Shown here: positions 1,598-61,100 of the stretch, piece after piece
How the letters are laid out: each line of letters starts with the position of its first letter
How positions within the stretch are numbered: position 1 is the stretch's first letter
Source of the DNA: Gari tellinella
Taxonomy: Eukaryota; Mollusca; Bivalvia; Cardiida; Psammobiidae
Assembly: GCA_922989275.2 (NCBI GenBank)
Contig: OV277859.1
Span: 82,332,198-82,396,197 of the forward strand
Reading direction: 5' to 3'
DNA: 64,000 nucleotides
Notes under the pieces: model-generated
What the model saw: the letters and a program-made list of their open reading frames with translations, nothing else
Databases searched by the model: none
Told to the model about the DNA's origin: nothing
Program-made: the position numbers and the translations under genes

Positions 1598-2006
1598 GTT
1601 AGTAGTTAGAGTCGTTATCGGGTAGTTGTAGCGTCGTAGGGTACTTAACTTTAGTGTTCGGTAGTTGGTTCTGTTATCGGGTGGTTTGTAGAGTTATGGG
1701 GTATTTACTGTTAGTGTTCAGTATCTAGCGTTTAAACAGACCAAATTGTTCGAATTTAGACCGGTTCTGTTGGAATAAAGAAAAGTAAAGCGAGTTGTTC
1801 GAATCGTCTCCTTTTATTTTTAAAGAAAAATACAAATCATAAAGAATTCATAACATCTCCAAGTAGCTATATTTCCTGTGTAGCTCGCTTTTTGTACAGA
1901 ATACCATCGTGACGGAACCAATGTGATTTGATTTATTGAAATTAAAGGAGTTAAATATCATTTAAGATAACACGGTTGCACGTTATAATCAACAGATCAA
2001 ACAGTC
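1598..2006. other. No gene seen
   Basis: The first ~130 bases hold imperfect direct repeats around TAGTTAGAGTCGTTATCGGG and related text; the remainder is AT-rich single-copy-looking DNA. No open frame or RNA gene is supported. Confidence 0.5.
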
Positions 2007-17880: not shown

Positions 17881-17883
17881 ATA

Positions 17884-18131
17884 TACAGTGCTCCCTCTCT
17901 ACAACAACACCTTATGGAAGACAAAGATTGCGCGCATTGTTCGGAGGGAGTTGCTAGGGGGAGAGAAAATTAAAGCTTGACTTACATTTGCAAACGGCTT
18001 GAATCAAGATTAGACGCCGCGTAAAGCGACGTCTGGTCTGGATTCAATCTGTTTGTTATTCTTCATTATATTCCTTTTTTGTCTAAATGTCAACAAATAT
18101 GTAATGTTGAGAAAAACGGCAGACGCCAACG
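17884..18131. mobile_element. Family B MITE, right end missing
   Basis: TACAGTGCTCCCTCTCTACA start, CTTACATTTGCAAACGGCTT, hairpin core, GAGAAAAACGGCAGACG; then departs from the family. Confidence 0.88.
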
Positions 18132-21484: not shown

Positions 21485-22206
21485 ACCCCTTCATCGCCAT
21501 ATTGTCGTTTGATTCAATATTGTGGTCAGCAATATCGTTTCAAAGTTAGATTAAAGGCAGTATAACTGACGTAATTTCAACACAAGTGACAGGCAGTTTT
21601 GATCCTGACCAAACGCAGCATTTCACCGCCCTAGTGTTGCCTGCTTCAATATCGTTGTCTGCAATATCGTTTCAAAATTAGATTTAAGGAAGTATAACTG
21701 ACGTAATTTCAAAACAAGTGGCAAACAGTTTTGATACTGATCAGTCGATGCCCTACACCGCCATTATGTCGTCTGCTTCAATATTGTTGTCTGAAAAATC
21801 GTTTCAACGTTAGTTGTAAGGGAGTATAACTGACGTAACTTCAAAACAAATGATGGCAAACAGTTTTGACCCTGATCAGACACCGTCCTCCACCGCCATA
21901 TTGTCGTCTGTTGCAATATTGTTGTCTGCAAAACAGTTTCAAACTAATATTTAAGGCGTTATAGCATTACTGACGTAATTTCAAAACAAGTGGCAAACAG
22001 TTATGATCCTGATCAGACGCCGCCCTTCACTGGCATATTGTCGTCTGCTTCAAAATCGTTGTCTGCAATATTGTTTCAAAGTTAAATTTAAGGCAGTATA
22101 ACTGACGTAATTTCAAAACAAGTGGCGAACATATACGCGGCGTCTGATCAGGATCAAAACTGTTTGCAAATTCATTTTATGACGTCATTGAGAGTGAAAG
22201 GGTTAA
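21485..22206. repeat. MITE (family H) with ~134-bp internal tandem expansion
   Basis: Units begin near 21556, 21688, 21820, 21954 and 22091, each with GTATAACTGACGTAATTTCA, ACAAGTGGCAAACAGTTTTG, GATCAGACGCC-type half core and ATATTGTCGTCTGCTTCAA. The last unit alone completes the hairpin (GTCTGATCAGGATCAAAACT) and ends GAGAGTGAAAGGGTTAA; a partial unit starts the block after TTTTACCCCTTCATCG. Structure is one element whose left half was amplified about fivefold. Confidence 0.88.
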
Positions 22207-28603: not shown

Positions 28604-28855
28604 TTAACCCTTTTCCCAATAGAAGCGCCTTTTAGCGAATATGAATTATTCCTCCGCTCAAGAAAATAGTTCCAATTTAATCAGTTATGAATATCTGTTA
28701 TAGGGAATATGTTTTATATTCTAGCACATGATAGCTTAAAGCAGGCTGAAAGTAAAGCAGAATGCGCCTTAGGGCGCATTCTGCTTTACTTTCAACCTGC
28801 TTTAAGAAGTCACATATATTCAATAATAGAAATAGACTATCAGGTAAAGGGTTAA
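28604..28855. mobile_element. Family D MITE (TTAA target site)
   Basis: TTAACCCTTTTCCCAATAGA ... CAGGTAAAGGGTTAA, 252 bp, with an almost perfect hairpin TTAAAGCAGGCTGAAAGTAA around GCGCCTTAGGGCGC. TTAA duplication plus CCC...GGG ends is what piggyBac-superfamily elements show. Confidence 0.95.
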
Positions 28856-29144
28856 GCTGCAACTTGTATTTAAGATTGATATTGCCCAAATTATTATGTG
28901 CTTGCTATTTAATATATCTCCGGTCATTTTAATATTTATGTAGATGCCTTCTAGTTTATGATATATGCATAATAGCCTGTATTGAATCCTAATTTCCTAC
29001 ATTCAAAAGACTGCAGCGGAAGAATATAGGAGAGGAAATATGAACGGCAGACATCCTTATATAGTGGTATATTATTTCGAAGAATGGTGGCATTCGATAG
29101 CGTTACCTTCTGGGTGCAGCAGGCGAATTTGTTTGTAATAATTT

Positions 29145-29307: not shown

Positions 29308-29559
29308 TTAACCCATTACCCCATAGCCTGTTTATAGTTTTGAAAATAGGTGACTACTTAAAGCAGGTTGAAAGTAAAGCAGAATGCGCCATATGGCGCA
29401 TTCTGCTTTACTTTCAGCCTGCTTTAAGCTTTTACCAGCTAGAATAAGGAAAGTATTAAATATGACACATATTCATTACGGTTTATATTGGAACTATTTT
29501 CTTCAGCGGATGAATAAAATGCATGTGCTAAAAGTCGCTTATATAAGGGAAAGGGTTAA
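29308..29559. mobile_element. Family D MITE (TTAA), reverse orientation
   Basis: TTAACCCATTACCCCATAGC ... AAGGGAAAGGGTTAA, 252 bp, hairpin around GCGCCATATGGCGC. Confidence 0.95.
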
Positions 29560-31030: not shown

Positions 31031-31530
31031 TAGGCACAAGTGGGTAAAGAAAGGAACTGTTACGTATTTACAATTTTTTCAGCTCCGTTGTCATTCTTTT
31101 ACTATTGACAAATGCCATATCATGAAAATGGACAATATGCAGCTCCGTTACTATTCTGTATTTTATGACAGTCTGTAAAGTATGATAAAATGAAACACTA
31201 CAGTTCCATTATTCTAGTGATGATTACAACAAATGCTTTACTATGAAATTTGAAACAAATGGATCCATTGTCACTCTGGAATTAATGATTAATCATATAT
31301 CATGAAATTTGAAAAGTTAAGCCTGATACTTTACATATATAAGAATTTGGACGTGTGCTGGACTTTTTGTTTGTCTTAAAACTACGTCTACATATCTGGA
31401 AACAAAATTTTAATTTCATTCTCAACCATCGCTATTTTCAAATGTTTAAGACAAATAGATCTGGCTGTTTAAGGCACATTGAAAGTTTAGCAGGAAAACG
31501 CATTCAATCTCGTTTAGGCCGCACATATCG
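31031..31530. other. No gene seen
   Basis: Short direct echoes of CAGCTCCGTT...TATTCT near 31080 and 31140 and of TATCATGAAA; no gene supported. Confidence 0.4.
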
Positions 31531-31830
31531 GAATTTCTGAGGTAAAACGTAGATTATCGTTGTTTAAACATTTAAATACGAACATCCGAATTTCAGATGG
31601 CAAACGTAGATTATCGTTGTTTAAACATTTAAATACGAACATCCGAATTTCTGAGGTGAAACGTAGATTATCCTTGTTTAAACATTTGAATACGAACATC
31701 CGAATTTCTGAGGTAAAACGTAGATTATCGTTGTTTAAACATTTAAATACGAACATCCGAATTTCTGAGGTGAAACGTAGATTATCCTTGTTTAAACATT
31801 TAAATACGAACATCCGAATTTATGAGATGA
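31531..31830. repeat. 57-bp minisatellite, 5 units
   Basis: Unit CGTAGATTATCGTTGTTTAA + ACATTTAAATACGAACATCC + GAATTTCTGAGGTAAAA repeated about five times with only a few substitutions. Because 57 is a multiple of three, both strands stay open (plus: 19-residue FKHLNTNIRISEVKRRLSL; minus: FVFKCLNKDNLRFTSEIR). I regard these frames as by-products of the repeat, not a gene. Confidence 0.93.
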
Positions 31831-33353: not shown

Positions 33354-33605
33354 TTAACCCTTTCCCCCAAAGAAGCGACTTTTAGCGTATTTAAGTTATT
33401 CCTCCGCTGAAGAAAACAGTTCCAGTTTATACCCTCATGAACAATTACCATTACAAATATTTTATATAGCCTAGCAGATTTTAGATTAAAGCAGGCTGAA
33501 AGTAAAGCAGAATGTGCCTTAAGGCACATTCTGCTTTACTTGCAACCTGCTTTAAGTGGTCACCTGTCTTCAAAACTAGAAACAGGCTATAAGGTAAAGG
33601 GTTAA
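33354..33605. mobile_element. Family D MITE (TTAA)
   Basis: TTAACCCTTTCCCCCAAAGA ... AGGTAAAGGGTTAA, 252 bp, near-perfect hairpin. Confidence 0.95.
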
Positions 33606-33674
33606 GCAGCAACTGATGTGGAACGAAATTGTTTGATATAAATAAATACGGCTGCACCATTAGCAGTGACAGAG

Positions 33675-33926
33675 TTAACCCTTTACCTGATAGCCTATTT
33701 CTAGTTTTGAAGATAGATGACCACTTAAAGCAGGTTGAAAGTAAAGCAGAATGCGCCTTAGGGCGCATTCTGCTTTACTTTCAACCTTCTTTAAGCTTCC
33801 ATGTGCTAGAATATATAAAATATAAGCTATAATATTTATTCACAACTGATTAAATTGGAACTACTTTCTTCAGCGGAGGAATAAATTAAATGCGCTAAAA
33901 GTCGCTTCTATGGGGGAAAGGGTTAA
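33675..33926. mobile_element. Family D MITE (TTAA), opposite orientation
   Basis: TTAACCCTTTACCTGATAGC ... TGGGGGAAAGGGTTAA, 252 bp, only 69 bases from the previous D copy and inverted relative to it, so the pair forms a ~570-bp inverted structure. Confidence 0.95.
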
Positions 33927-36393: not shown

Positions 36394-36874
36394 TTAACCC
36401 TTTCCCTCATAGAAGCGCCTTTTAGCGCATTCAAGTCGGCAATCTTTAGCCGGTCGGTTCATTGCTGATTGATGGGGGTAATGTGATCGCCGTTTTGGGG
36501 ACTGTCTCTTATATGTTTATTCAAGTTTTATTTCAGATCTAATTATAGTTATTTTGTCTTTTCTCGATTTGTAGGTACATTTATGTTATTTCATGTAAAG
36601 CGCTTTTGAACGCACAACCCCTGTGTGAAAAGAGCGCTATATAAATCTGGTATAAAAATAATAATAATACTCCGCTGAAGAAAATAGTTCCAATTTAAAC
36701 TGTCATGAACAATTAACATAAGAAATATTTTTATATAGCCTTACAGATGGTAGTTTAAAGCAGGCTGAAAGTAAAACAGAATGTGCCTTAAGGCACATTC
36801 TGATTTACTTTCAACCTACTTTAAGTGATCACCTGTCTTTAATATTATAAAAGGGTTATTGGGTAAAGGGTTAA
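36394..36874. mobile_element. Family D MITE (TTAA) nested in A
   Basis: TTAACCCTTTCCCTCATAGA ... GGGTAAAGGGTTAA with intact hairpin, but 229 bases longer than other D copies because of the insertion at 36437-36669. Confidence 0.92.
36437..36669 (+). mobile_element. SINE-like insertion with ATAATA tail
   Basis: Interrupts D after GCGCATTCAAGT and before ACTCCGCTGAAG. Its 3' end GTGTGAAAAGAGCGCTATAT AAAT...ATAATAATAAT resembles SINE or LINE tails, and a short relative GTGAAAAGAGCACTATATAA occurs at 50936. No box A/B identified, so class is uncertain. Confidence 0.65.
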
Positions 36875-37166: not shown

Positions 37167-40100
37167 CTGCAAAATAAAAGAGACAGTGAGCAGACATATA
37201 TTACATCTTTATACTATCTTTTTCAACCCATAATATTGTAATTGCAATTGTATTCTCTATCAAAATGCTCAATCTGATCTCATCTTTCAAATTCAAACAT
37301 TGAGGCATTTTAAATCAATGAACAGTGATATAAGCCTTAAGCAGTTTGGCTCCTGATCAGACGCCGAGTAAGTCGCCATCTGATTTGGATTAAAACTGGT
37401 TTGAAAAGACAATGAAGTCGGGCTTAGCAGTGACATTTTTGGTTGTTGTAGATGACCATTGATATGGAAGAAGTATACCAATACAATAGTTCTTACCTCC
37501 TTAAGCCTAAGTTCTGTGTTGAAACCACTCGATATTTCCGACAATAAAGTCATAGTTGAAGATGCACCAAGCCTAAAATATAGCGAAAGGCTACCTGTTG
37601 TGACGTTTGTCTAAGATGAACATTAACCTTTGCAATGTGAGAAGCGAGTTTTCTAAACCTTTACAAATTGTTACAATGGAAAAAAACGTTTTTGTTTCCA
37701 AATAAACGCGTTTGTAAACGCTAAAGCTATTATTTTGTATTGTAATTAGTTTGGAGCCGCATAAGACACCGCGTCATACTCTTTGTCACTCAGATTTAAA
37801 AATGTGTTATTTTGTACGTTTTAATTCAGCGCGTTTGCCTTTCATTTGCGTTTAAACGGGGAAAAATAACGTATTATCCACTGTAGAATCCAAATTAAAT
37901 ACAGAGTAAGACATTGTCTTATCAGGAACTGAACTGTCTATCACTCTGGGTTTATTGTGTTACAATCTAAACATTTATTAAAGACCATGCCTGTGCTGGA
38001 AACAAGTTAAATATTGCACGGTTCCTTTGCAAGCCCTCTGATTGGGGTCTGTTTAATCAGATTTACTTATATTTTTCAATGGTATAGCTTTGAAAACACC
38101 CCTTCAAAATGAAAAAAGATAATTTTCTAAAAATGAAATAATCTGTATGAAAAGTTAACCGAAAATAGGAATGCGCATAAACTAATTGAATTACAGTTCA
38201 ATATGAGAGTGGGAGCACTTTGTATGAAGGTTGTCTTGCTGGAAGGTTAAGTTACCGGCAGCACAACGTCACCAAGAAGTACAAGATCTCTGTACCTCTT
38301 GGCATTAAGGGTGCCGGAAATAACGATGAGGCTAAACTTTCCCTCCCGTTACCATAACAGTTTCTGATCCTCGTCGAAATCGGCCAGCCTCTATCATATC
38401 GCGTTAGTCTAAAGCACGTACACGGTCGTCTGTTTTCTGCAGCATAGACCGTGACTTCTCTGGTAATCCCTATTCAACTATCCTGTATCCATCCTCTACC
38501 CATGTATTATCCTGTTGACCATCGTAGGCGATGTCGACACGTCAGATCTAGTCCAACGTATGCCACGCTCACGTAACCTATTTACTACTGTCTTACTACT
38601 AATTGGACGGTTATGTGTCCCATGATGAATGTTGCAGAAGTGGTAACTAGCATGATGGCTCTGTATCCATGAGACAAAATACCTACGAAGAGCCACGTGC
38701 TGTATGTGAACCTCAATTTGCGCCAAACAACTTTTTTGTCATGTGTTCACCCAGCCGTGATAAAATGTCAATGAAAGGTATATGACTAATCTCTCAAGTG
38801 CGTAGAAACGTGTTTTAAGCCCTACATATTAAATTCAGGAGAATTATCAAGTATGTATGGTTTTGCGTTAGAAGTTTGTATAAGTATCTTTACTTACTTC
38901 TCCATTATATCTTCGTAGTTACTTCTAAATAAATCCCATGCCAAGCACAAATCAGACTTGATGTAGCTTAAAGCAGTGTAATTTGAAGTGGAAATCATCA
39001 TTTCTACATATCTGAAAACAAAACACAAAAACCTGTTTACACGGCAATCAGCTAAGTACATAATTGCAATGATATACCCTTCACTGTAAGGAGAACGGGG
39101 GCCCGTTTTACTAAACAACTTATGAAAATGATTTGCGTAAGTCAAATTTTTAAACTTTAATTTATACTTTTTATTATCACTTGCTACAAACAGCAAAACG
39201 TTTATGGTCGAAAAATAAGAGTTAAACGATTATGACTTACGCAAAAATTTTGTGTAAGTTGTTGAGTAAAACGGGCCCCGGATGTATAAAATTGCATGTG
39301 TTGTCTTCCCCGCGACGAAGGCGCCGTCAGACATTTGGATATAGCCAAGCGTAAAATATGTTTTCAAACTATTTCTCATTGCCATAAATTCATTCTCACT
39401 TTCGCTCACTTCCCACTGCAACGTGGCATGTAATTCAGCAGAATTATTGTGGCTTGTTTAACCATTTTAATCTCAATGACGCTTACAAGCGCGTTTGCAA
39501 ACAATTTGGATCCTAATCAGACGAAGCTAACGCGGCAACGCGCAACTTTTTGACACTCGTTTTGAAATTTCTTAAACTGCCCTTTTGTAACTTTCAAACG
39601 ACATTGCAGACAACACAACTGAAGCAGGCGACAATGAAACGGTTACAGGGTATAAAATTTCACAAAAGATTTGGCAGTGAAAGGGTCAAATTTAGTTTTT
39701 AAGCATTCAAATTATCTGAGCACAACTCATTGTGAGTTATGATCGCTATTCTTCTGGAGTTCACAATATCATGCAAATCCGTCAATATTTAGAGGTGTGT
39801 GAAGTTTGCACGACATTCGACAATTCGACATTCGACCTTTCACAAATGAAAGGTCGAACAGCTGTCGAATTTCGACTTTCGACATTTAAGCTTTCACATA
39901 ATGTAACAAATTTTGCCGATCGACAAGTCAACTTTGCCATAATGTAGAAATATTGTCGAAATTCGACTTTCGACATTCAAAACTTCTTAAACACATTACT
40001 TTGTCGAACTGATGTCGAATTTCGACGTTCGACATTTATACAAAGTCGGCAAATTGTCGAACTAGGGTTGAATTTCGACGTTCGACAAACTGCAAGTAAG

Positions 40101-43100
40101 GGAAAAGTCGAAATATTGTCGAAATTCGACGTTCGACATTCAAAACTTCTTAAACACATTACTTTGTCGAACTGATGTCGAATTTCGACGTTCGACATTT
40201 ATACAAAGTCGGAAAATTGTCGAATTAGGGTCGAATTTCGACGTTCGACAAACTGCAAGTAAGGGAAAAAGTCGAACTATTGTCGAAATTCGACGTTCGA
40301 CATTCAAAACTTCTTAAACACATTACTTTGTCGAACTGGTGTCGAATTTGGACGTTCAACATTTGTACAAAGTCGGCAAATTGTCGAACTAGGGTTGAAT
40401 TTCGACGTTCGACAAACTGCAAGTAAGGGAAAAGTCGAAATAATGTCGAAATTCGACGTTCGACATTCAAAACTTCTTAAACACATTACTTTGTCGAACT
40501 GATGTCGAATTTCGACGTTCGACATTTATACAAAGTCGGCAAATTGTCGAAATAGGGTTGAATTTCGACGTTCGACAAACTGCAAGTAAGGGAAAAGTCG
40601 AAATATTGTCGAAATTCGACGTTCGACATTCAAAACTTCTTAAACACTTTACTTTGTCGAACTGGTGTCGAATTTCGACGTTCGACATTTGTACAAAGTC
40701 GGCAAATTGTCGAACTAGGGTTGAATTTCGACGTTCGACAAACTGCAAGTAAGGGAAAAGTCGAAATATTGTCGAAATTCGACGTTCGACATTCAAAACT
40801 TCTTAAACACATTACTTTGTCGAACTGATGTCGAATTTCGACTTTCGTCATTTATACAAAGTTGGGAAATTGTCGAAATAGGGTCGAATTTCGACGTTCG
40901 ACAAACTGCAAGTAAGGGGGAAAGTCGAAATATTGTCGAAATTCGACGTTCGACATTCAAAATTTCTTAAACACATTACTTTGTCGAACTGATGTCGAAT
41001 TTCGACTTTCGTCATTTATACAAAGTTGGGAAATTGTCGAAATAGGGTCGAATTTCGACGTTCGACAAACTGCAAGTAAGGGGGAAAGTCGAAATATTGT
41101 CGAAATTCGAAGTTCGACATTCAAAATTTCTTCTCAACACATTACTTTGTCGAACTGATGTCGAATTTCGACGTTCGACACTTATACAAAGTCGGGAAAT
41201 TGTCGAATTAGGGTCGAATTTCGACGTTCGACAAACTGCAAGTAACGGAAAAAGTCGAAACATTGTCGAAATTCGACGTTCGACATTCAAAATTTCTTAA
41301 ACACATTACTTTGTCGAACTCATGCCGAATTTCGACGTTCGACATTTATACAAAGTCGGGAAATTGTCGAACTAGGGTCGAATTTCGACGTTCGACAAAC
41401 TGCAAGTAAGGGAGAAAGTCGAACTATTGTCGAAATTCGACGTTCGACATTCAAGATTTCTTAATACACATTCCCTCTGTTGAAATTATGTCGAATTTCG
41501 ACGTCCAACAATTTTCCGGACCCGGGAAAAGTCCAAATATTGTCGAAATTCGACATTGTTCTTTCAACAATTCTTTAATGCATTCACTATGTCGACCTTA
41601 TGTCTACCTTCGACGTTCGACAAGTGATCTGTCAAGGAAAAAATCGAAATATTGTCGAATTTCGACATTCGACATTTCAACAAAGCCAGTAAAGTGTCTA
41701 ATTTATGTATATTTTCGACAATCGACAAATTTCCCGATAGTGCAATAGTCGAAATAGTGTCGAATATCGACGTTGGACATTATCCTTTTACCAAAATATT
41801 GAAAAATTGTCAAAATATTCGACTTTCTTCTTTTAAAATTACTTGAACACACCCACTATGTCGATCATGTGTCCAATTTCGACATACGACAATTTTCCAG
41901 GCCGGGAAAAAGTCGACACATTATGTCGAATTTCGACATTTGACATAGTCCGTTTACCAAAATGTCGAACGTTTGACGAAATTCAATGTTCGACTTTCAA
42001 CACTACTTAAAAACATTCACTATGTCGAACTTGTGTAGAAATTAGACGTTCAATAATTTAGCGAGCCTAAAAAAGTCGAAATGTTGTCGAAATTCGTCAT
42101 TTGACAATCAACATTTCTTTACCACATTCACAATGTCGAACTTATGTGGAATTGTGACGTTTTACAAGTGCCATTGCAGGGAAAATGTCGAGTTATTGTC
42201 GAAGTTCGACTTGCGAGAAATTGCCAGACAGGTAAATAGTCGAACTATTTTCGAATTTCGACTTTCGATATTGTCCTTTCACCAAAGTGGTAAACATTCA
42301 ACATTTCTATAAAGTCTGGGAAATGTGGAAAAAGTATCAGATTTCAATTGCGACAATTTAACGGCAGATAGTGCGAATAAGTCTTCGGGAGTCGTGCGAT
42401 TAAATCTGTATACGTATGGGGCAATTGCGGACTGGACCGAAAGTGCCTAGAAGAGCACTTTGATCTAGTAATACACTGTTTACTACATGTATTTGACAAG
42501 AATGAATAACTGTACCAGGCACTATTATTTTGTAATTGTATTTAGATGTATAACCTGAATATTTATACGAAACACAGTTTGAATTCAGATTAAAGGTCTT
42601 CTACCGAACTATATTCATCTAGGTCTTATACTTGTCTAACCTGCTGTGTAACGTATTGATGTATATTTGGTACAGCTAGACCGCAAACAGATCACACCGG
42701 GCCTGGTGTCTCCTACCAGAGCCCACTGGGCAGGGTCTTCACTATAAAAATTATACAATAACATGTATTTTGTGTAATTTTATATAGGCGTATAGTCGGT
42801 AAGTTCAGTGACATATTAAAGATTGCTCACGATCAAGTCTTCAATAACCTTAAATGTACGAGTTACTATATATGTAATAAAGTTAAGTAATATTTTACAT
42901 ATACTCGTAGATACGGTGTATATACTGATTATACCAGGACTATATTAGTCACCTGGGAGGGCCATTGTGCTGATCCTTCACTGTTTTCAGTAATCTTGCA
43001 TGCACGGATTATCTTACACTGGTAGAATGCCATTTCTATAATAAGATGGAATATTTATAAGACAAACTGTTTTGGGAGTAGGTCGGTGGTCTTCAATCCG

Positions 43101-46100
43101 AAACCATTGACATGTGGCTGTTTCTAGTATTGAAGATGGATGACCGTTTAGAGTTAAGTAGAATGCAAGTAAAGACCAGTTCTGCTTTGCGTTCAACCTG
43201 CTTTAAGCTTTAGACTATCATCTGCTAGATTATAGAGAATGTTACTAATAATAAATATTCTTGAATGCGTAGAATAGAACTATTTTCGGCAAAAAGTGGA
43301 AGATGAAAGATGTTAAAATGCGTATCTGTGGAGTAATGAGTTTAAACTTAAAAGCAAACGTTTACCTTCCGGTATCTAATCCCTTATAGCTGATCTATAG
43401 ATTGAAACATGATGCGCCTTATAGGGTACGGTCTGTTTCAAGTTCAGACTGCTTTACCCGATAAATACGCCTCTAATTTATTCTTTCACCGACGAAAATA
43501 CTTCCATTTATACAGTCATGAAAATGTATCATAAAGCAGACTAAAAGTAAAGCAGAATGTGCCTTAATGCGCATTCTGTTATACCTTCAACCTGCTTCAA
43601 GTATTCGGTTATTCATCTATCTTAAAAACAAAGAAACGGGCTTTGTGGTTTGTGGTAAATAGAAAATATTTGTTATGATAAAATTGGTGACTGTCTAGGC
43701 AGAATTTTTTTCTTTAGTGTTGGAGTGAATTGAAATGCGTATATGGAGCAATGGGTTAATTGGTCAACCTATATGTGTGGTCCCTGAACATTAACCCTTT
43801 GTTCCATAGACTGTTTCTAGTATTGAATATAGTTGACCAATTAAAGCGGGTTAAGAGTAAAGCTAAATGCGCATTGAGACTGCTTTAAGCTTTAAACTTT
43901 CGGTTAACATCTGTTTGAGAATAATATATAATATTTGTTATTATATATTACTGTGTACTTACTTACTTACCTATTTGCTCGTCTGTAATAGACAGAGCAG
44001 AACAGAACAACCCTTTCTTTTTTTGTCACAGAAAACAAAACATATGTTTTGTAATTACATGTGAAGTATAATATAATAAAAAACTATTGAGTTAGTAGGA
44101 CATTTGGTGGTCGAATACTGAATTAATCTGCGATCTAGAGGGAAGGTGGAAAAATATTAAAATACTTAACTAAATGGTATGGACACAATATGTAGAAATA
44201 AATACCAAGCTATTATTAGATGATACAATATATAAATTAGCTATGCAGATCAGTTCACTTATAATAAAGCAAACTGGTCCGTCTATAGTTAAAGCTGCGA
44301 CTATTCTTTCTTTTGAACAATTTCCAAATAAAAAAAACCTCACATGTCTATAGAGGGCATCATTGCTGATGTAGTCTTATAGTGAGTAACAGAGTTGACA
44401 AGAGAGAAGTACAATGTAACCCTCCCCAAACGGACATTAAAAAAACGAAGTCAAATTGCGACAAATACATCGTCAAGCAAGAACAAGAAGAAAACTGAGT
44501 GAGGCGCTGCCTTGGCAATGCCTCAGACCGTTTGGATCCTGATCTGGCGACGAAATGCACAAGTGAGAGGTATGTGTCGTAAAGTCCGGGGGAAGTAGGC
44601 TACACTGTACTTCATTTTATTGACGGATACCGTGGGAGTTTTGTCCATTTCCTTCAAGGTCAGCACGTGCAGATGTAGAATTTTAGTAAATAATAACACT
44701 GACAGACGAGAAGTACTGTGTTGCCCTGCTCAGCCGGACAAATATATAAAGAAGCATAGTTTGTCAAATATTTTGTCAGTTCAAAAACCGAAGGGAAGAA
44801 TCGCGTACGTTTCTATTAGGGAAGATACACTCTACTTGGATCATGTTTTATGTGACAAGACGCATCAGACGATGGTTAAGATAGTGTCCCTAAGAACGTT
44901 ATATTGTAATAGAGACGATCATTTTTAATAAATGTTCAAAGTACATGTACTACGCGAATTATATGTTTCTGAATTAGTCGTATATCGACTATTCAGCATT
45001 ATCGTCTCTTAAAGACGATTACATTTTGTCCTATAGCGCGTTTTATATTTTCAGTGAATCGTCTTTGAACTACAATTAAACATTATCGTCTCAAAGAAAC
45101 GATATAAGTTTGCGCCATTATGCATTTTTCAATGCTACACTTGGTGTGGTAGCTATTTGCCCGTTGCTGTCAATCACACTAGACTAAACGCCTTGAGAAC
45201 GTTAGACCTTTTTGTTTTTTAAATTGGCATTATAAAATAAGCAAATTTTGATAATGTAAACTTTTTTATTATTTCGACAATGTTTTAAGGTTATAGATCC
45301 ATAATGCGAAAATCTGAACACCGTTTCCGCATAATTATTCTGTAATATGCCCGGCACAATCTTACTACACGAACATTAAAGCTACATGTATATATCGATG
45401 GTCGATGTTTTCTATTATGGCTCTAAAACCTTAACAAAGAAAGGACCAGTGAAAGAAGAGCCATTTACTCCATAGCCAATTTCTATTTATGAAGACTAGT
45501 GACTACGAAAAAAAGGTTGAAAGTAAAGCAGAATGATCCTTATTACACATGCTGCTTTACCTTAAGCTATCATCTGCTAGAACATAGAATTATTTATTAT
45601 GATACATATTCATGACTGTGTGAGTTGTACCAATTTTCTTCATTAGGAGGAATTACATGTAGTTCACAGCGTTAAACGGCATATCTAGGGAGTAAATGGT
45701 TAACATAAAAAGGCACTGCAAAATCATAGCATTGCTCTATTCCAATATTTCGGGACATTTTGCAAAGAAAATTATGTCCGACATGATTTTCTTTAAAAAG
45801 GCAATTAGAGGTCGAACTATCAGAAAAGAGCATCGTTATAATTTTTAACTAATTTATTTCCCCATTTCGAATATTGCTATATCTGTCTTTAAAGGCACTG
45901 CAGATAAATCTTTAAAATGGCGTTAATCCATTGTATTTCAATTATATTATGAAACACCAGGTACCTTTGAACATCGTAGGACTTTTATGTTCTTATTGAA
46001 GCTTATGATTGCTTTGGCAAACAGTGCATCCATTGATCAGAATGCTCTTGTATGAGCTATCTGAGCTGGGTCTACATTATTTGCATAATACTGATCCATC

Positions 46101-49100
46101 AGTATCCAGCCTGTAATAAGTTACACATAAGCAATACTTGTAATTCAAAGACATACATGTATAAGGACCTCCTTGACATTATAATCAGCAATGCCTAGAA
46201 AGTGTACATGTAACATGGACATAGTCTGTTCGCAGGCATAGGGATAAAGTAAAATCAAAGGCCACCCTCTAAGTATTTTGTAAAATACGAGTAGTGTATA
46301 ATGAAAGGTCAACTTCATGTATTGATTCTAATCTGTTATTCAGAAATTAGATGACCACATGGCAAAGTGACCCACAGAAAGTGTTTCTGCATAATAATTC
46401 GAATATGCAAAAAAGCAGAGGCCAATTTATAAGGGAAAAAATAATGAATCCTTCGTAGATTGGATCAGAAGGTAATATCTTTTTAAAAGTTAAATAAGGC
46501 TGAGCTTTTCGATATATTTCCACTGATTTCATAATTATACAGTTCGGTATGAGAAGGATGTAATACATATAATTGTGCATTTCTAACATTCATGAAAGAT
46601 CTTATTCGCTGTTCACCTAAACCCCGTCCTATAAATCAGGGCGGCCATTTCTCCGGATGTCTTCCGAAATCTTCTGATTTGTATCCTAGCAGATGGTACA
46701 TGTAGTTTTGAACAGACTGGAAGTAAAGCAGAATGCGCCTAAATACGCATCCTGTTTTACTTTCAATATCTGTTTTAAGTTTCCTTGTGTCTAGATAATG
46801 ACTATAGTGTAAAATCGCGTTTGAAAAATAGAAAAAATGGGAAATCGACAATATTTCGACTATTTCCTGGCTCGGCAAATTGTCGAACGTCGAAATTCGA
46901 TATAAATTCGACAAAGTGAATGTGTTTAAGATATGTTGAAAGTCGAACGTCGAATTTGGACAAATTTTCGACATTTTGGTAAAAGACCAATGTCAAACGT
47001 CGATATTCGACAATAATTCGACTATTGCACTATCGGGAAATTTGTCGATTGTCGAAAATATACATAAATTAGACACTTTACTGGCTTTGTTGAAATGTCG
47101 AATGTCGAAATTCGACAATATTTCGATTTTTTCCTTGCCAGGCCACTTGTCGAACGTCGAAAGTAGACATAAGGTCGACATAGTGAATGTATTAAAGAAT
47201 TGTTGAAAGAACAATGTCGAATTTCGACAATATTTCGACTTTTCCCGGGTCCGGAAATTGTTGGACGTCGAAATTCGACATAATTTCAACAGAGGGAATG
47301 TGTATTAAGAAATCTTGAATGTTGAACGTCGAATTTCGACAATAGTTCGACTTTTTCCCTTACTTGCAGTTTGTCGAACGTCGAAATTCGACCCTAATTC
47401 GACAATTTGCCGACTTTGTATAAGTGTCGAACGTCGAAATTCGGCATGAGTTCGACAAAGTAATGAGTTTCAGAAATTTTGAATGTCGAACGTCAAATTT
47501 CGACAATATTTCGACTTTTTCTCTTACTTGCAGTTTGTCGAACGTCGAAATTCGACCCTAATTCGACAATTTCCCGACTTTGTATTAATGTCGAACGTCG
47601 AAATTCGACATCGGTTCGACAAAGTAATGTGTTTAAGAAATTTTGAATGTCGAACGTCGAATTTCGACAATGTTTCGACTTTTTCCCTTACTTTCAGTTT
47701 GTCGAACGTCGAAATTCAACCCTAATTCGACAATTCCTGACTTTGTATAAGTGTCGAACGTCGAAATTCGACATCAGTTCGACAAAGTAATGTGTTTCAG
47801 AAATTTTGAATGTCGAACGTCGAATTTCGACAATATTTCGACTTTTTCCCTTACTTGCAGTTTGTCGAACGTCGAAATTCGACCCTAGTTCGACAATTTC
47901 CCGACTTTGTATAAATGTCGAACGTCGAAATTCGACATCAGTTCGACAAAGTAATGTGTTTAAGAAATTTTGAATGTCGAACGTCGAATTTCGACAATGT
48001 TTCGACTTTTTCCCTTACTTTCAGTTTGTCGAACGTCGAAATTCGACCCTAATTCGACATTTCCCGACTTTGTATAAGTGTCGAACGTCGAAATTCGACA
48101 TCAGTTCGACAAAGTAATGTGTTTAAGAAATTTTGAATGTCGGATGTCGAATTTCGACAATATTTCGACTTTTCCCCTTACTTGCAGTTTGTCGAACGAC
48201 GAAATTCGACCCTAATTCGACAATTTCCCGACTTTGTATAAGTGTCGAACGTCGAAATTCGACATCAGTTTGACAAAGTAATGTGTTTAAGAAATTTTGA
48301 ATGTCGAACGTCGAATTTCGACAATATTTCGACTTTTCCCTTACTTGCAGTTTGTCGAACGTCGAAATTCAACCCTAGTTCGACCAAGTCCCGACTTTGT
48401 ATAAATGTCGAACGTCGAAATTCGACATCAGTTCGACAAAGTAATGTGTTTAAGAAGTTTTGAATGTCGAACGTCGAATTTCGACAATATTTTGACTTTT
48501 TCCTTACTTGCAGTTTGTCGAACGTCGAAATTCAACCCTAGTTCGACAATTTCCCGACTTTGTATAAATGTCGAACGTCGAAATTCGACATCAGTTCGAC
48601 AAAGTAATGTGTTTTAAAAATGTTGAATGTCGAAAGTCGAATTTCGACAATATTTCTACATTATGGCAAAGCTGACTTATCGATCGGCAAAATTTGTTAC
48701 ATTATGTGAAAGCTTAAATGTCGAAAGTCGAAATTCGACAGCTGTTCGACCTTTCATTTGTGAAAGGTCGAATGTCGAATTGTCGAATGTCGTGCAAACT
48801 TCACACACCTAATATTTAGTCCGTTGCCGTTTTAGTGTCTACAAATGTGTACCGGCGGACGGTAACACGTTAAAAAGCCCATCCATGGTAATGAGTTCGA
48901 TCCCCCGCCGGACCATGTCCTTCGAATAAGACTTTAAAACAAGGTCCCATGTATCAGTGCTCATGTAAAAGGACCAAAGGTCTCTATGGAAAGAGAGAAT
49001 GCCTATGCACCCGATTCCCTCTCTATCTGACGCCAATTAGCCCAAAGTTGGCAGAAACGGACATAAATCAAAAGCAACAACACAATGAGTGTGTCTTTTG

Positions 49101-52100: not shown

Positions 52101-55100
52101 ACAGTTTGGACCCTGATAAGATGCCGCGTTACGCGGCGTCTGATCAGGACCCAAACTGTTTGACACTATTTTCGATATTTATTAAGTCATACAACCTTAA
52201 TTGAACTTTGAGACTTGTCTTACAGACAGAGATACAGACGCAGACGACCATAAAGCGGTGAATGTAATAAAAATCTCCCGAATAATTTGATCATGAAAGG
52301 GTTTGGTCCATACCCTGTCAGGAAAGTTTAAGAAATGAAGAAAACAAAATGAGGAGGACCACCATTGCAGCGTTTCATTAGGCTTGTCGTTGCATTCTCT
52401 AGCTTTGCAACAATAGACAATACTCCGAAATAGAAAAAAACAGTATTTGGCGAATGATTTCACTAAGCATGTTATAACGTTCTTTCAAAATTATGTTGGA
52501 ATATAATGGTTTCATTGACACCTGAAACATAAAATAAACAAATTGCTTCAAATTAAAATTGCCGTCAAATGAATTGTGGATATATCGTTAGATGAATCAA
52601 ATACATATGTAACTCAATTAAAGATCTCTTCATTTGACTGAACGCAACTTTGATAAATTGAATATATCGTCAAATAATTGAACACATATGTGCAGAACAG
52701 AAACCAGGCAACTCGGTATCTAGCCAGACACCAAACTATTTGTCTCTCCGTTTAACGAGGAGCACCAACATGTTTAAATGCTGTTTTTTTATTTTTTGAA
52801 CAGGAAATAAAAAACGTCACCGCCCTTGTAATCAAATAGCCTTCAAGTAAAAACAAATATACTTTACATTGTCGTCAATTCTCTAAAAGATTGAGGCTGT
52901 GCAGTACAGCAAAAACTAATACAGTGTTCCCTCTCTACAACGACATCCAGTGGGAGACACAGATTGTGTGTGTTGTTCGGAGGGAGTCGTTATAGAGAGG
53001 GAATATAAAGCCTGGGCTTACATTTGCAAACAGCTTGAATCCAGATCAGACGCCGCGTAACGCGGCGTCTGATCTGGATCAAGTTGTTTGTCACTCATAA
53101 TTATATTTGTTCTATCAAAATATCCACTTCTATGTAATATTAAGAAAAACAGCAGACGAAAATTTTAAGCAGACGACAATGCAGCAGTAAAACGTAAGAC
53201 ATAATTGTCCGGTTTAGGGAACTGAGACAAGAGTCGTTGTAAGGAGGGAGTCGTTGTTGGGAGGGCCGTTGTAGAGAGGGAACGATGTACTCTACTTTAA
53301 GAGTGGCCGGTGTTAAAAGAATAATAATATACTTTCAGTCCGAATGACCGCTCAGCCGACTGTACAGTTACTTCCCCAATCAGTGAGCTGCCTACAATAT
53401 TGAGCAATCTAATGTAGCCGCAGTACCGGCTCAGACCCTTCACATGTACCCATTTTAATCCCTGGGTGGAGAGGAGAAATTCGCGGTACATGTCTTGCTA
53501 AAATATATTCCAGTTCATCATCGGGCATTCAGAAAAAATCCCCTAGTCAGACCGCTGGTTCGGTGGGGGATCGAACTAACGACCCCTGGTACCGTAGTCA
53601 AATGTATTACCACTTCAACACTACCGCCACTAACTTCATACATGTAGGTATATGTGTTTATCTAATCAGTAGGAGCTTAACACAAACTTTATTCTACGGG
53701 AAATCAACTTAATTCAAACTTGTATTCATCGAGTATTTTGCATGCATTAGCCGTTACCCTTAGCTTGTGTTCAGTCTTTAAACAGGCTGCAGGAATTTTC
53801 TGCATTATTTTCAGTCTATTTCGATAAGCAGCAAACTGTAGTAATACAAAACTACTTTTTCTATGCATTTTAACAAGGCATGACAAAGGTATGAACTGGT
53901 GTTTCTATGAAGGGCAAGTTTCTATGAAGGACAGGTCAATGCGCTCTAAGACGCTTCTCTGCAGGAATAGGTTAGGCGATAGCCAGTCTAACACTAAATA
54001 CGTGTCGTCCACACTACCAGTGTATATTCTTTTCACTGACCCCTTAACCCTTTACCTTATAGAAGCGACTTTTAGCGCATTCCGTTTAATCCTCCGCGGA
54101 AGAAAATAATTCCAGTCTATACAGTCATGAAAATGTCTAAGAAGAAATATTTTCTTAAATCTAGTTGGTGGTAAGTTAAAGCAGGCTGAAAGTAAAGCAG
54201 AATGCGCCTTAGTGCGCATTCTGCTTTACTTTCAACCTGCTTTAAATAGTCAATTATTTTCAAATCTAGAAACAGGCTATAGGGTAAAGGGTTAAGAAAA
54301 GATATACAAATAACGAAAGCTGATTGTTAATACTGTGAGGTTATAATTATAACATTATCCCTTTCCCCCATAGAAGCGCCTTTTAGCACGTTTAATTTAT
54401 TCCTCCACTGAAGAAAATAGTCCCAATTTATACAGTTATGAACATGTTTTATAAGAAATATGTTCTCTATTCTAGCAGATACTAGCTTAAAGCAGGCTGA
54501 AAGTAAAGCAGAATGTGCCCTAAGGCACATTCTGCTTTACTTTCAACCTGCTTTAAATGATCACCTATCTTCAATACAAGAAATCCGCTATGGGGTAAAG
54601 GGTTATAGAGTGCAATACTAAATTTTATCAGACAAGTACACATCAGTCATAATCAATATTTGGACAATGCGAATGAAATTCAGTACAATACGCGTTTATC
54701 TTGTATCGTCACGTGGTAGGAAGAGAAACTTCCAATTGTTTAAATCTAAATGGATGAGAAATAAAAACTCTTACCCCGATGGGTATTCCTCGCTAGATTG
54801 TGACAAACCGGAAACCACTTCATAAGGCTGTTTAAGTAACTCTGCCATGAATTTCTGCAAAGATCAGAAAGGTCAATGCAATGTCAAACCCAACCCAACC
54901 TGCATTCATTAGTTATTGTATAATGATTTAGCTAGATAAACTTAAGGCATTCTAGCCAATACAGTAGCTACTATAAACAACATACAACTAAATTGCAAAT
55001 ATTAGCTACAATGTGGATAGATTGAGAGATGATGAGAAATAGTAACTCAAATACAAATTTAGGATGAGAAAACATAAATAGAGAGTCTAATAATATATAA

Positions 55101-58100
55101 TATTAACAAAAACACTGTGACAGCCTATCAGGAGATGATGGCTTGTCTTATCAAATGTTTATACTTTCACCAGCCTGATGAGAACCATGGAGAGGTATTG
55201 CCTATTTCCTGTTGTGTATTCTATCAGTAAGTTATTCATGCCGTCTGTGAATGAAGGGTTTAATCCACAGGTTAATCTTTCGTGCGATAAATTCAGGGCA
55301 ACCAGAAAATAATTCTGGTTGCCGTGTGGGCAACCAGCTTTTATTAAAATGTGTCGTGCCATGCAGTGCCAAACAAAAAGCGTTGTATCAGCGACAGAAC
55401 ATGAAGAAGTGCTCAGTACTTTCTATTTCAACACAGTGACAAAGTGGTGAATGTACTTTATCCTTATGAATAAGAGTAAGGTTAAGAGAACTTCAGTTTG
55501 TTCTTAGTCGGGTATTGAGAAAGTGCGCATACCTATGTTCAGTGTAGTAGTAAGGCGGTATATTCGATGTTCTGTCTAAGCTTAGCGAGTGCTTGAAAGA
55601 AGATTCGAGTTTCAGGTAAGAGAACCAGTTTAAGCTATACTAGACAGTTTTGAAATAATATAGCCTGTGTTGGCTATAGTAAACAGTTTAAGTAAAAACT
55701 ACAAAAAACAAAACAAGAATGATATAGCCAGTTTAAGTTATAAATGTTTACAAATGATAAAGCCATTTATTAGCTACCATAAATAATTTAAACACGATAT
55801 AGCCACCAAAAACTATACTTAACAGTTTAAAATTGATATACATGTAGTCAGTATAAGATTTAAACAATTCAAAAACGATTACCTACAACAAACGATTTAA
55901 AAACGAAATTATCATTATAAGTTACAATAAACAATTTAATTCATTAAAGCCAAATTATCTACAGTATACAAATAAAAGCAATATAACAAGTATCATCCAA
56001 AATGCACAACTTAGAAACCCATATATAGCCAATATTGTCTACATTGTCTGTTTGCAGACATAGCCGGCGAGAGTCGTCTAGCCAAACAACTAGATCTACA
56101 GGTATCCTTGCTACTGCAAGGGGCTGGGAGTTTCAAGGGAATCACAGGAGCTTATTGAAATTGTCACCACATGTAGGCATCACCATACACAGGCAAGATG
56201 TACTGTTGCACTCAAAATGCACATATCATCTAGTCATTCTGGAACTGGCTGTACCATGTGCGAAAAAGGTATAAGAAGCTCTTGACAAGAACAAGGCAAA
56301 GTAGCAGCCTCATATTAAATAGATCCTATCATAAAGGTTGGAAGATATTGTGCCTATCTAAAGAAACTTCGTACGACATAAGTCAGATTATGAATTTCTA
56401 AATTATTTTTTATTTATCCATCTAATAATGTATTGTGACATCTCTTTGACTTAGTCTTGAAAAAACGATTTAATCGAAATGTCACAGGACATGATTAGAT
56501 GGGGAAATTGTATGTGTTTTAATGTTTTGACTAACGACCGTTTTGTCGTACGACGTTTCGTAAGACAGGTCCCTGGTCCTTGTCTGTTGAAGTACGGTGC
56601 CGATGATTCTTGGCATCATAGGAGCTATCAAAAGAACGGTAATATATGGCATATGCAGGCAAAGAAGATTAGCCTCGCAGTGGCTGTGGCAAAAGAGGGG
56701 GCAGCAATGACATAGCAAACCAGCTCCTGGCTCAGCTTGAGCACCGTTATCGGCACATATCTGGGATACGTTGTCGAAAGCTCCAACACGTCCAGTGAAA
56801 GAGACTCCACCTGATGATGGGGCTTGTTTTGCATTGTAATAACATTGTATCATAGTACAGCGCTCCCTCTCTACAACGACCCTCCAACAACGACACCCTC
56901 CTTACAACGACCTTTGCCGCAGTTCCCTAAACAGGACAATTATGTCTAACGTTTAAATGCTGCAATATCGTCTGCTTAAAATTTCGTCTGCTGATTTTCT
57001 TAAAATTACATATAAGTGGACAATTTGATAGAATTAAGTATAATGACGAGTGACAAACAACTTGAATCCAGAGCAGACGCCGCGTTACGCGGCGTCTGAT
57101 CTGGATTCAAGCTGTTTGCAAATGTAAGCCAAGTTTTTTAATATAACGACTCCCTCCGAACAACGCACACAATCTGTGTCTCCCATTGAGTGTCGTTGTA
57201 GAGAGGGAGCATTGTAATTTGATATTTATTAATCTTAAAATAACAAATTTTTCGATATGCCTTAAGTTCTTTTCCTATGAAACTTTAAAAGTAAGGGAAT
57301 ACCCCAATGTTTGAACAAACGATATGTTTTCGGTCAAAAGGGTTAAGGAATTTGGCGTTGAAAGATTAAAGATTTATCATTTATTGCAATGAAGATGTAA
57401 ATCTTAGAAATGCTACTGCTTCTAGTTCATTTCTCCATGTTCAGATAAACTAGTGGTTAACCCATTACCCCATAGCTTGATTTTAGTTTTGAAATTGGTG
57501 ACCTCTTAAAGCAGGTTGAAAGTAAAGCAGAATGTGCCTTAAGGCACATTCTGCTTTACTTTCAGCCTGCTTTAAGCTACTATCTGCTAGAATATATAAA
57601 CTATTTCTTATGATTCTTATTTGTAACACTATAAATTGGAACTATTTTCTTCAGTAGAGGAATAAATTAAAGGCGTACAAAAGCGTATTTATGGGGTACT
57701 TGGTTAACATTGCCTCTTGGTGAGAATTTCGAAACATATGAGTGACGGTAAATAGAGGGATCTCACCCTTATGTGTCTACACATATACTTATTCCCAGCG
57801 CTGAAATGGTTTATTCCACCATCAAGTTGCAAATGGATTTAGTATATGACAAACAGTGTAGACCTTGAACAGAAGGCTTCATTATCAGTGTTGTTATACT
57901 TTCTGGTCCTTTGGAATCATTGATGTCTGCGCATTTACAGTTGAAAGTTGAATTCCGCTTAAGCTGGTGCTAGGGGGTGTGAACACTGTTGTATATTTCA
58001 GTATTGCTCATGAACAGACTCAATTAAACCGAGTCTGCAATTTTCAGTATTTGCTTTGTTTTCTGTGCTTTCAAAGGATCTCCCCTTATTCAGATTTAGC

Positions 58101-61100
58101 AAAGGATGTATGCACTGTAAGCACAAATACGAACGGACAAACTGTGGTACCTATTCCTCAATCTTACCCATTTCAAACAGTTAGGATCTAGATCAGGTGC
58201 TACATATGAGTTGTCTGATCAGAATGCAAACTGTATGACGCTTGTATCAGTATTCTACTCTTTCATGATCACATATTCGTGAGGTTTTTACCTCTTCGCC
58301 GTTTCATTGTCGTCTGCTTCAATTTTATTGTTTGCAAGATCGATTCACATTAAGATTCCATGTAGTATTACTTAAAATATATCAATACGAGTGTCAAACG
58401 GCGTCTGATCAGGACCAAAACTGTTTGAAAACGCGCCTTGTGCCTCATTGAGGGTAAAAGAGTTAACGCCAGAGCTTCAAAGTTTGATGTTGCATGCAAT
58501 TGCAGACGAACATTTTAGCAGACGATATATTGTAAAGACTAAAGGTTAACGGTGGTGAAAGGGTTAACCCATTACCTCATAGCCTGTTTCTTGTTTTGAA
58601 GACAGGTGATCACTTAAAGCAGGTTGAAAGTAAAGCAGAATGTGCCATAAGGCACATTCTGCTTTACTTTCAGCCTGCTTGAAGCTAAAATCTGCTAGGC
58701 CATATAAAATTTTTGTAATGGTAATTGTTCATGAGGGTATAAACTGGAACTACTTTTCTTCAGCGGAGTAATAAATTAAATACGCTAAAAGTCGCTTCCA
58801 TGGGGGAAAGGGTTATCATACTACATTGTACATGTAAATACTACGCGGCACACGCTGCTAGGCTTGCTGATGGTTTGAAAGAAAACTACTGGACTTATGG
58901 CTGCAATTGCTACTTTTCGGACCCTGAATCTAAGAATTATTCTATTTATGTTCACCTCACCTTAAACTGCCAATATACTGAAAATCCGTTTGTCATTTGG
59001 TGAATAGTAGTCCACTGGTTCACCGTGTCATACCAGTGATGATATTCCCTCTGATTGACGATGTGTGCCGTGCATTGTACTGCAATATCCATGTCAAGTT
59101 TACCAGTCCTTAAAATAAAGTAATTGGATACTAAATGTAATCGATAACCTGATAAATGGCGTATTCTTTCCGTTAAAATTTGAAAAAAACACACAAGTAT
59201 ACGCCATGAAATGAATAAAAAATGTAAATGTACTTCAGTCTTTCCACGTAATGACTGAAATTTACAGTCATTTAATGAAATAACTGATTAAACAGATTTA
59301 CCATAAGATAAACATATCTAATAATCTGTAAGTCAAAACATTTGTGGCGTGATCAGACTTCTCCAAACTATATAACATGTTTTTCACTGTTTGCTGCCCA
59401 TTTTACTCCTTCACGGCCTTGTCTCGAGTACAAAAACTATTTGCAAACAGTTTGAGTCAAGATCAGACGCCGAGCGGCTCAACATCTGTACAGGAACCAA
59501 ACTGTTCGACACTCATCATTGTTTATTACATAAACAAACTGACCCCTAGCGACGTACATATACTGGTCACGTTCAAACAGTGTACATGTGAAAAACATTT
59601 GACGAATTCAAACAGTATTGACTCTAATCAGAGGGCTCCTTTTGAAAAGGGGTCTCCGTGGCCTAGTGGTATAGTCACTGTGACTTACATCACTAAGCTC
59701 CTCACCGCTGTGAGTTCGAATCCCAGTAGGGTCGTTCGAATTTTTCATTTGGGGAAGCCTTCCAGCTGGCTTGCGGAAGGTCGGTGGTTCTACCCAGTTG
59801 CCGATTTGTGCCTGAAACAGTGCATAAAGAACTTCTGGGGTCTTCCTCCACCTATAATTAGCTGGACGTCGTGATATGACTGAAATACTGTTGAAAGCGA
59901 CGTAAAATCAAAACAAATCAAATCAAAATCCTTTTGTAAAGGGTTTTGCACTATTTGTTATTTTAATATATGCTATAAAAACGCTTACAGTGGAGAATCT
60001 GTTATTCTTTCCCAATATAAACGCATTTACGCTAAAACTATTATTTGCAGTGCAAACAGTTTGGAGCCAGATCAGACGCCGGGTAACCCGGCGTCTGATC
60101 AGGCTCCAAACTGTTTGCCACCAAGATAAACATGAAATATCAGAATTGTCCAAAAGTTGTTCTTTTCTACGTTTTAGCGCTTTGCGTTTGCGTACGTTTG
60201 CGTTTAAACGGGAAAGAATAACAGATTCTCCACTGTACGTATAGACAAAAGTTGACCAGCCTTCATCGGATACTGAAATTCTTTCATCTTAAGTTTCATG
60301 GATTAATGAATTGAACGTTTTGAAAAAAAAATCAAATCAATTATGCATTTTTATCACAAAACACGCAAAATATGCAGTGTAATATAAATCGTAAACACAA
60401 TATGCAGATAGTATGATACTAATTTACGATTTACTGAAATACTGTATAACTACCCCGACTGTAACAAAAGTTTAGTTTCACAAACTTGGAACACCTTGAG
60501 TCAGCGAAATATCTCCTAGTGTCCAATTGAGTTTATTTTCTCTTTGTTCCGAGCAACCAAAAAGAAAAGACTTTGTATTATTAACAGTGACTCAGAATAA
60601 GACTTATAAAACAGCTTGTAGCATGATCAAATCTGATTTTTGAAAATTTAACGTTACATTATAATGACTTCATATCATTGTAAGAATGTTATTCCGAAAA
60701 CAAAGGTGAGTATCAAAGAATCATTTCAGTCAATAAAAAGAACTGATTAGGGTGAACTCGAATTTCGAAAATTTAATATGTTGTCAGACAAGGCTTCTCA
60801 TAACATAAATTGTAGATGTTTCCCGTAACTTTACATTCCTAAATATTAATACCGCCCACAAAAAAATGTGTGTTAAATGTCATTAAGTTTAACTTTTACA
60901 TGATATCTGGTTTTCAGGTCTTAAACATCTGAAATTGACCACTTAAAGACTTTTCCTCATTCCATTGATGGACTATCCCCATTATCCTGGATAGGTGAGA
61001 AAAAGCATGCCGCTAATGCTTACCAATCTCAGTTTAACTGGTGAGGTCCAGCTTACACTCATGTTCTATTGCTTTTCAATGGTTATTTCTAACCAAACTA

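What the first reader, a model, noticed from the sequence alone, without database searches (positions are those of the whole stretch)
39784..48819. A 9-kb foldback-type transposon with a perfect 9-bp target duplication
Seen: identical AATATTFAG-type duplication (AATATTTAG) on both sides, 12-base perfect inverted tips, and ~187-bp caps differing at about two bases, so the whole 9,018 bp moved or expanded as one unit and the ends are young or homogenised. Known: foldback (FB) and Mutator-like elements make ~9-bp duplications and can have long repetitive arms. Inference: a non-autonomous member of an undescribed foldback family, with partner transposase elsewhere in the genome.
Basis: partly seen in the sequence, partly recalled or inferred. 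Interest (0 to 1): 0.9.

Follow-up and report, generated by a model that had tools for sequence, protein, structure and literature searches.

The report
Foldback transposon with multiplied motif arms
This is a 9-kb jumping-gene copy of a known architecture, the foldback transposon; its two mirror-image arms repeat one short DNA motif dozens of times, and that motif stays unusually constant, as expected if it is the landing site of the enzyme that moved the element.

Summary
Window 39793-48810 (9,018 bp) is flanked by an exact 9-bp duplication, AATATTTAG. The arms (~2.5 and ~2.0 kb) carry 9 and 8 copies of a 163-bp unit. No coding sequence was recognised in the ~4.5-kb loop. It is a foldback-type, apparently non-autonomous DNA transposon. 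A Mutator-like (MULE) enzyme is the best guess from the 9-bp duplication; without a transposase that is inference.

New here: the 163-bp unit is a trimer of 59+53+51-bp subunits, each with one 31-bp core of four half-sites, GTCGAA-N5-GTCGAA-W-TTCGAC-N-TTCGAC. The arms hold 77 cores (up to 6 substitutions); the central loop and the rest of the window hold none. Half-sites differ between arms 1.7-3.5 times less than other positions, by zone, and rotated masks rarely match this. One core lies 61-91 bp from each end; Galileo's proximal transposase site lies about 70 bp from its end. Best model: the arms are multiplied transposase-binding sites.

Genome-wide copies, host and partner transposase were not tested: the own-genome search did not complete ten times. 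New member of a known kind.

The parts
39784..39792 (.). Left copy of the 9-bp target-site duplication AATATTTAG
39793..39980 (+). Left cap (188 bp): perfect match to the right cap for 131 bp; holds a 12-bp stem with a 4-nt loop and the first four-half-site core (39853-39883)
   Evidence: folded as single-stranded DNA, z = -5.18, 0 of 200 shuffles as stable
39944..41417 (+). Left outer array: nine 163-bp trimer units, mostly 59+53+51 bp (approximate edges; the first core overlaps the inner end of the cap)
41418..42290 (+). Left inner arm: more diverged subunits still carrying recognisable cores (approximate inner edge)
42291..46841 (.). Loop, about 4.5 kb, no coding sequence recognised; contains five stretches of a dispersed hairpin repeat also found around the element
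46842..47351 (-). Right inner arm: more diverged subunits, counterpart of part of the left inner arm
47352..48659 (-). Right outer array: eight 163-bp trimer units (approximate edges)
48623..48810 (-). Right cap (188 bp), inverted counterpart of the left cap, two differences
48811..48819 (.). Right copy of the 9-bp target-site duplication

Best explanation
A foldback-type, apparently non-autonomous cut-and-paste DNA transposon, in what looks like eukaryotic intergenic DNA, inserted as a single 9,018-bp unit with a 9-bp target duplication (shown by structure). Its arms are multiplied copies of one module: a 31-bp core of four half-sites, GTCGAA-N5-GTCGAA-W-TTCGAC-N-TTCGAC. One core lies in each cap 61-91 bp from the end, the next 91 bp further in, then one about every 50-61 bp (one 112-bp gap on the left), the outer ones organised as 163-bp trimers (shown). 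Inferred: a transposase encoded elsewhere, most likely Mutator-like (8-11-bp duplications), binds the cap core and the arrayed cores, pairs the ends and cuts at the tip. The arrays raise binding strength and specificity and grow and shrink by unequal exchange or slippage. The caps are kept alike by functional constraint, gene conversion between the arms, or both.
For: Duplication, tips, caps and arms. Trimer structure of the 163-bp unit. Cores at up to 6 substitutions: 43 in the left arm and 34 in the right (each arm read on its own strand), 0 in the loop (42351-46800) and 0 in the rest of the window, both strands. TCGA occurs 58-62 times per kb in the arms against about 2 elsewhere. Constraint between arms: half-site positions differ at 26 of 839, other positions at 82 of 1,135 (Fisher p 5e-5). 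Mask rotations that do as well: 9 of 1,973 (all), 3 of 1,785 (outside caps), 1 of 1,268 (outer array, 11 of 556 against 50 of 713), 7 of 516 (inner arm, 15 of 235 against 30 of 282). Among the 17 trimers 12 of 72 half-site positions vary against 33 of 92 others (Fisher p 0.008); 1 of 163 rotations does as well. Array turnover: L6/L7 differ at 1 position and L3/L5 at 4, while R1, next to the right cap, is closest to L1, next to the left cap, at 6. Parallel: the Galileo THAP domain binds about 70 bp from the end and again inside the TIR tandem repeats (PMC3688188, passages).
Against: No transposase, no second copy and no binding data. Array units are related by duplication, so substitutions are not independent; the Fisher p values are optimistic and the rotations are the fairer control. 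In the between-arm test the half-site mask was drawn with the motif itself (up to 6 substitutions), which favours intact sites. Taking the whole 31-bp core instead of its half-sites weakens the trimer result (21 of 93 positions vary against 24 of 71, Fisher p 0.12; by changes 46 of 1,581 cells against 55 of 1,207, p 0.024): the constraint is on half-sites, not on the N5 between them. The inner arm shows only a 1.7-fold difference. CpG positions as a class are not less variable (23 changes over 32 positions against 78 over 132). The caps are alike outside half-sites too (2 of 140), so half-site binding does not explain all of the cap identity.
Confidence: 0.7

Rival explanations
1. The arms are a satellite-like repeat carried by a transposon; repeat homogenisation (unequal exchange, gene conversion) makes the motif look conserved and it has no binding role.
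For: Recent duplications within one arm are plain (L6/L7, L3/L5), and satellite-like arrays inside transposons are known in oysters and flies (PMC7492417 and PMC4079207, passages). The whole-core test on the trimers is weak.
Against: Homogenisation alone gives no reason for half-sites to change 1.7-3.5 times less than their neighbours, nor for one core to lie inside each cap. In the 13 inner left subunits spacers are nearly unalike (0.435 against 0.381 shuffled) while cores keep their shape (0.71, biased upward by how they were found).
Confidence: 0.2
2. Mobilised by a transposase outside the Mutator group (P/Galileo-like, or, from memory, Merlin or hAT kin) that left 9 bp here. This concerns the enzyme only and is compatible with the binding-site model.
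For: It has been suggested that foldback structure arose independently in different lineages; Galileo belongs to the P superfamily (PMC4079207 section 17 and PMC3573991).
Against: Galileo duplications are 7 bp (PMC3573991 passage). Tm1, Muta1, Phantom and Rehavkus lie at 8-10 bp (passages). One insertion cannot settle it.
Confidence: 0.3
3. Assembly artefact: an inverted duplication joined wrongly.
For: Long inverted arms with tandem arrays are hard to assemble (general knowledge).
Against: A false join would not be expected to create an exact 9-bp duplication at the two outer boundaries. The arms differ by 5.9% outside the caps and have different unit counts, 9 and 8, so they are not one arm written twice.
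Confidence: 0.04

Closest known systems
Tetris (Drosophila virilis foldback; PMC4079207, passages and section 17)
   Same: Terminal flanking domain, then ~220-bp tandem repeats, an inner domain and a middle with no apparent coding capacity; 8-10-bp duplications; no autonomous copy found; assigned to Mutator largely by duplication length
   Different: No sequence comparison made; unit here is 163 bp and a trimer of subunits sharing a four-half-site core; arms longer (about 2.5 and 2.0 kb against up to 1,735 bp)
Tm1 (root-knot nematode Mutator/Foldback; PMC3169594, passages)
   Same: Composite TIRs with a repeated short motif, mostly 9-bp duplications, several classes of copy of which one codes for a transposase
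   Different: Tm1 repeats a ~14-bp motif and ends in asymmetric 7-bp motifs; here the tips are symmetric for 131 bp
Galileo (P superfamily; PMC3688188 and PMC3573991, passages)
   Same: Long TIRs with tandem repeats that hold secondary transposase binding sites; [quoted passage not shown]
   Different: 7-bp duplications; three binding sites located in the TIR studied against 43 and 34 core motifs here; no palindrome mentioned (term searched, 0 occurrences)
Muta1 / Phantom MULEs (PMC5225508 and PMC6446971, passages)
   Same: 8-9-bp (Phantom 8-10-bp) duplications; Muta1 TIR of a terminal motif plus tandem subterminal repeats, with over 300 putative non-autonomous derivatives
   Different: Muta1 TIR is 145 bp with 9 copies of a 12-bp repeat, total 3.2 kb and coding; here no coding found
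Rehavkus (PMC6446971, passages)
   Same: 9-bp duplication, minisatellite near an end
   Different: Minisatellite described before the 3' TIR, TIR 26-400 bp, PHD-finger transposase; no transposase seen here

Membership tests
Foldback (structural class) | Long inverted arms built largely of tandem repeats around a loop | tested here: met
Foldback (structural class) | Target-site duplication flanking the arms | tested here: met
   (9 bp, exact)
Foldback (structural class) | Mobile: several copies at different sites | not tested
   own-genome search did not complete; no arm match outside the element among the self-comparison rows printed (at most 200 rows) and no core elsewhere in the window
Mutator-like elements (MULE) | 8-11-bp target-site duplication | tested here: met
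   9 bp, one insertion; range from PMC6446971, passage
Mutator-like elements (MULE) | MULE transposase in the element or in an autonomous copy with the same ends | tested here: inconclusive
   none recognised in the loop by Pfam-A; the rest of the genome was not searched
Galileo / P superfamily | 7-bp duplication (Galileo) | tested here: not met
   duplication is 9 bp; 7 bp from PMC3573991, passage
Galileo / P superfamily | THAP-domain transposase | tested here: inconclusive
   no THAP match in the loop; a trans-acting source was not searched
Tetris | Sequence identity to Tetris TIR domains | not tested
   Tetris sequence not fetched or compared

The most novel reading that the evidence does not exclude
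A new foldback family in which each arm is a large platform of 34-43 four-half-site (two forward, two reverse) binding modules, kept by selection on the half-sites even in a copy in which no coding sequence was recognised, so that the arms recruit a multimeric transposase (or a host protein that the element exploits) along more than 1.5 kb of DNA at each end.
Probability: 0.3. Interest if true: 0.65.

Novelty: new member of a known kind. Interest (0 to 1): 0.42.

Why it matters
Why foldback elements carry kilobase-long repetitive arms is a standing question. [quoted passage not shown] whether later work settled it was not checked beyond the searches listed. This element gives a precise, testable candidate site, its distance from the end, and a measured constraint on it.

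Tried and rejected
Loop as a decayed transposase gene: six frames with X at stops against Pfam-A gave one non-significant match. Three open frames from the element and two from elsewhere in the window were also scanned without a match (five proteins, 0 families at E 0.1).

Relatives through translated repeats: the translation of 47694-48014 (minus strand) found one candidate and no hit at E 0.01. Pattern scans found 0 stretches in genome contigs (one pattern) and 0 in viral contigs (two patterns). An animal element would not be expected in those two collections, and records of the window's own genome may be left out of them.

Empty site: the joined flanks (600 + 9 + 600 bp) against the window gave no match across the junction other than the flanks themselves.

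Structured RNA or tRNA: 0 Rfam matches at gathering scores and 0 ARAGORN genes in the window.

Literature, open-licence papers only: four short motif strings in full text gave one paper, a study of the fungus Ustilago maydis, taken as unrelated from its title and the start of its abstract. A five-term foldback search gave 0 papers. Other searches: 25 of 27 papers listed, 5, 9, 15 of 25 listed, 11. I read passages of eight papers (PMC3169594, PMC6446971, PMC4079207, PMC5225508, PMC3573991, PMC8268682, PMC7492417, PMC3688188), one section in addition of PMC4079207, and none in full. PMC8268682 gave nothing used here. None of the listings or passages seen describes this motif, but that does not show that the family is unpublished.

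A first attempt to cut the array at a fuzzy anchor split it mostly into 51-61-bp pieces and gave no distance matrix. That is how the trimer structure was seen; redid it.

Full report
WHAT IS THERE. AATATTTAG occurs at 39784-39792 and 48811-48819, directly outside a 9,018-bp segment. Reading inward from both ends, the first 131 bases are perfect inverted repeats and the first 188 differ at two. Two random places of the window share a 9-mer in 79 of 2,000,000 trials. The arms align as inverted repeats over most of their length: 87.8% over 1,890 bp in the register of the tips and 92.9% over 1,831 bp one unit out of register. The left arm has one more 163-bp unit than the right. The inner left arm runs on for about 300 bp of degenerate repeat without an in-register partner in the right arm.

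ARM ANATOMY. Tandem Repeats Finder gives a 163-bp unit, 9.5 copies left and 8.5 right. Cut at the repeated motif, the unit is a trimer of about 59, 53 and 51 bp. Each subunit holds GTCGAA-N5-GTCGAA-W-TTCGAC-N-TTCGAC, two forward and two reverse half-sites, followed by a spacer. With up to six substitutions allowed there are 43 such cores in the left arm and 34 in the right, each arm read inward on its own strand; none in the loop (42351-46800) and none in the rest of the window on either strand. One lies within each cap, 61-91 bp from the end. Spacing between neighbouring cores is 91 bp for the first pair, then 50-61 bp, with one exception of 112 bp in the left inner arm. Deeper in, trimers give way to more diverged subunits with worn cores. 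TCGA density is 58-62 per kb in the arms against about 2 per kb elsewhere, and CpG observed/expected is 2.26 and 2.45 against 0.84-0.86.

ARRAY HISTORY. Among the 17 trimers (nine left, eight right), L6 and L7 differ at one aligned position and L3 and L5 at four, so units were duplicated within an arm. R1, the unit next to the right cap, is closest to L1, next to the left cap, at six differences. This fits arrays that turn over inside while the cap-proximal unit stays put. Some units match best across arms out of register (L9 and R5, three differences).

CONSTRAINT. Between arms, half-site positions differ at 26 of 839 and other positions at 82 of 1,135. By zone, half-sites and others: caps 0 of 48 and 2 of 140; outer array 11 of 556 and 50 of 713 (3.5-fold); inner arm 15 of 235 and 30 of 282 (1.7-fold). 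Rotating the mask along the alignment, which keeps its spacing, reaches the observed low value in 9 of 1,973 (all), 3 of 1,785 (outside caps), 1 of 1,268 (outer array) and 7 of 516 (inner) rotations. Among the trimers, 12 of 72 half-site and 33 of 92 other positions vary, and 1 of 163 rotations does as well. Against: if the whole 31-bp core is taken instead of its half-sites, 21 of 93 positions vary against 24 of 71 (p 0.12). Limits: units share ancestry, and the between-arm mask was found with the motif. CpG positions as a class are not less variable, so low mutability of CpG does not explain the result.

LOOP. About 4.5 kb, G+C 0.349, with CpG and TCGA values like the surroundings. Pfam-A finds nothing significant in six frames. 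With the copy at 28640-28860 as query, a dispersed hairpin repeat covers 23 intervals of the window, five in the loop and 18 outside the element, the query included. The loop thus resembles the surrounding DNA, by capture or by later insertions; which of the two was not tested.

MECHANISM. Shown: the structure of an insertion as one unit, inverted caps, arrays of a four-half-site core, and lower variability of the half-sites. Inferred: a transposase supplied in trans binds the cap core and the arrayed cores and joins the ends. The parallel is Galileo, whose THAP domain binds about 70 bp from the end and again inside the tandem repeats (PMC3688188, passages). A Mutator-like enzyme is the best guess from the 9-bp duplication, as argued for Tetris (PMC4079207 section 17) and Tm1 (PMC3169594 passages). 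This is one insertion, so it remains a guess.

PLACE AMONG KNOWN THINGS. Structure and duplication meet the foldback description. Tetris has the same order of domains. Galileo membership fails on duplication length (9 against 7 bp). MULE membership stays open without a transposase.

VERDICT. Ordinary in kind, unusually clean in detail. The useful new part is the candidate binding core, its regular multiplication and the measured constraint.

Noticed in passing
window 28640-28860, 29308-29517, 33396-33610, 33675-33884, 36670-36874, 54086-54296, 54397-54605, 57457-57665, 58564-58774 and shorter pieces: A ~205-bp dispersed repeat with a ~60-bp near-perfect central hairpin; 23 intervals in the window with one query copy, 5 of them in the loop. 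In three copies read by eye the stem differs between copies yet stays paired. Its ends read about TTAACCCTTT, which recalls piggyBac-type MITEs (label from memory, not tested).
   Followed up: partly
window 17520-17969 (-): 150-aa open frame with 6 unnamed protein relatives of 20 candidates (E 1e-19 to 5e-12) and no Pfam match; looks like the end of a non-LTR retrotransposon protein (from memory).
   Followed up: partly
window 48851-48914: Just right of the element: CCGGCGG...GTTCGATCCCCCGCCGG, like a tRNA-derived SINE head with a B-box-like stretch (from memory); ARAGORN and Rfam report nothing.
   Followed up: partly
window 21487-22131 and 39458-39635: A 132-bp tandem array; sequence at its end (22037-22206) is about 70% similar to the left flank of the element (39458-39635).
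   Followed up: no
window 1-1600: About 1.6 kb of degenerate AGAC/AGAGAC-rich simple repeat, open for 475 codons on the minus strand.
   Followed up: no
window 31527-31826: Clean 57-bp tandem array, 5.3 copies, 93% matches.
   Followed up: no
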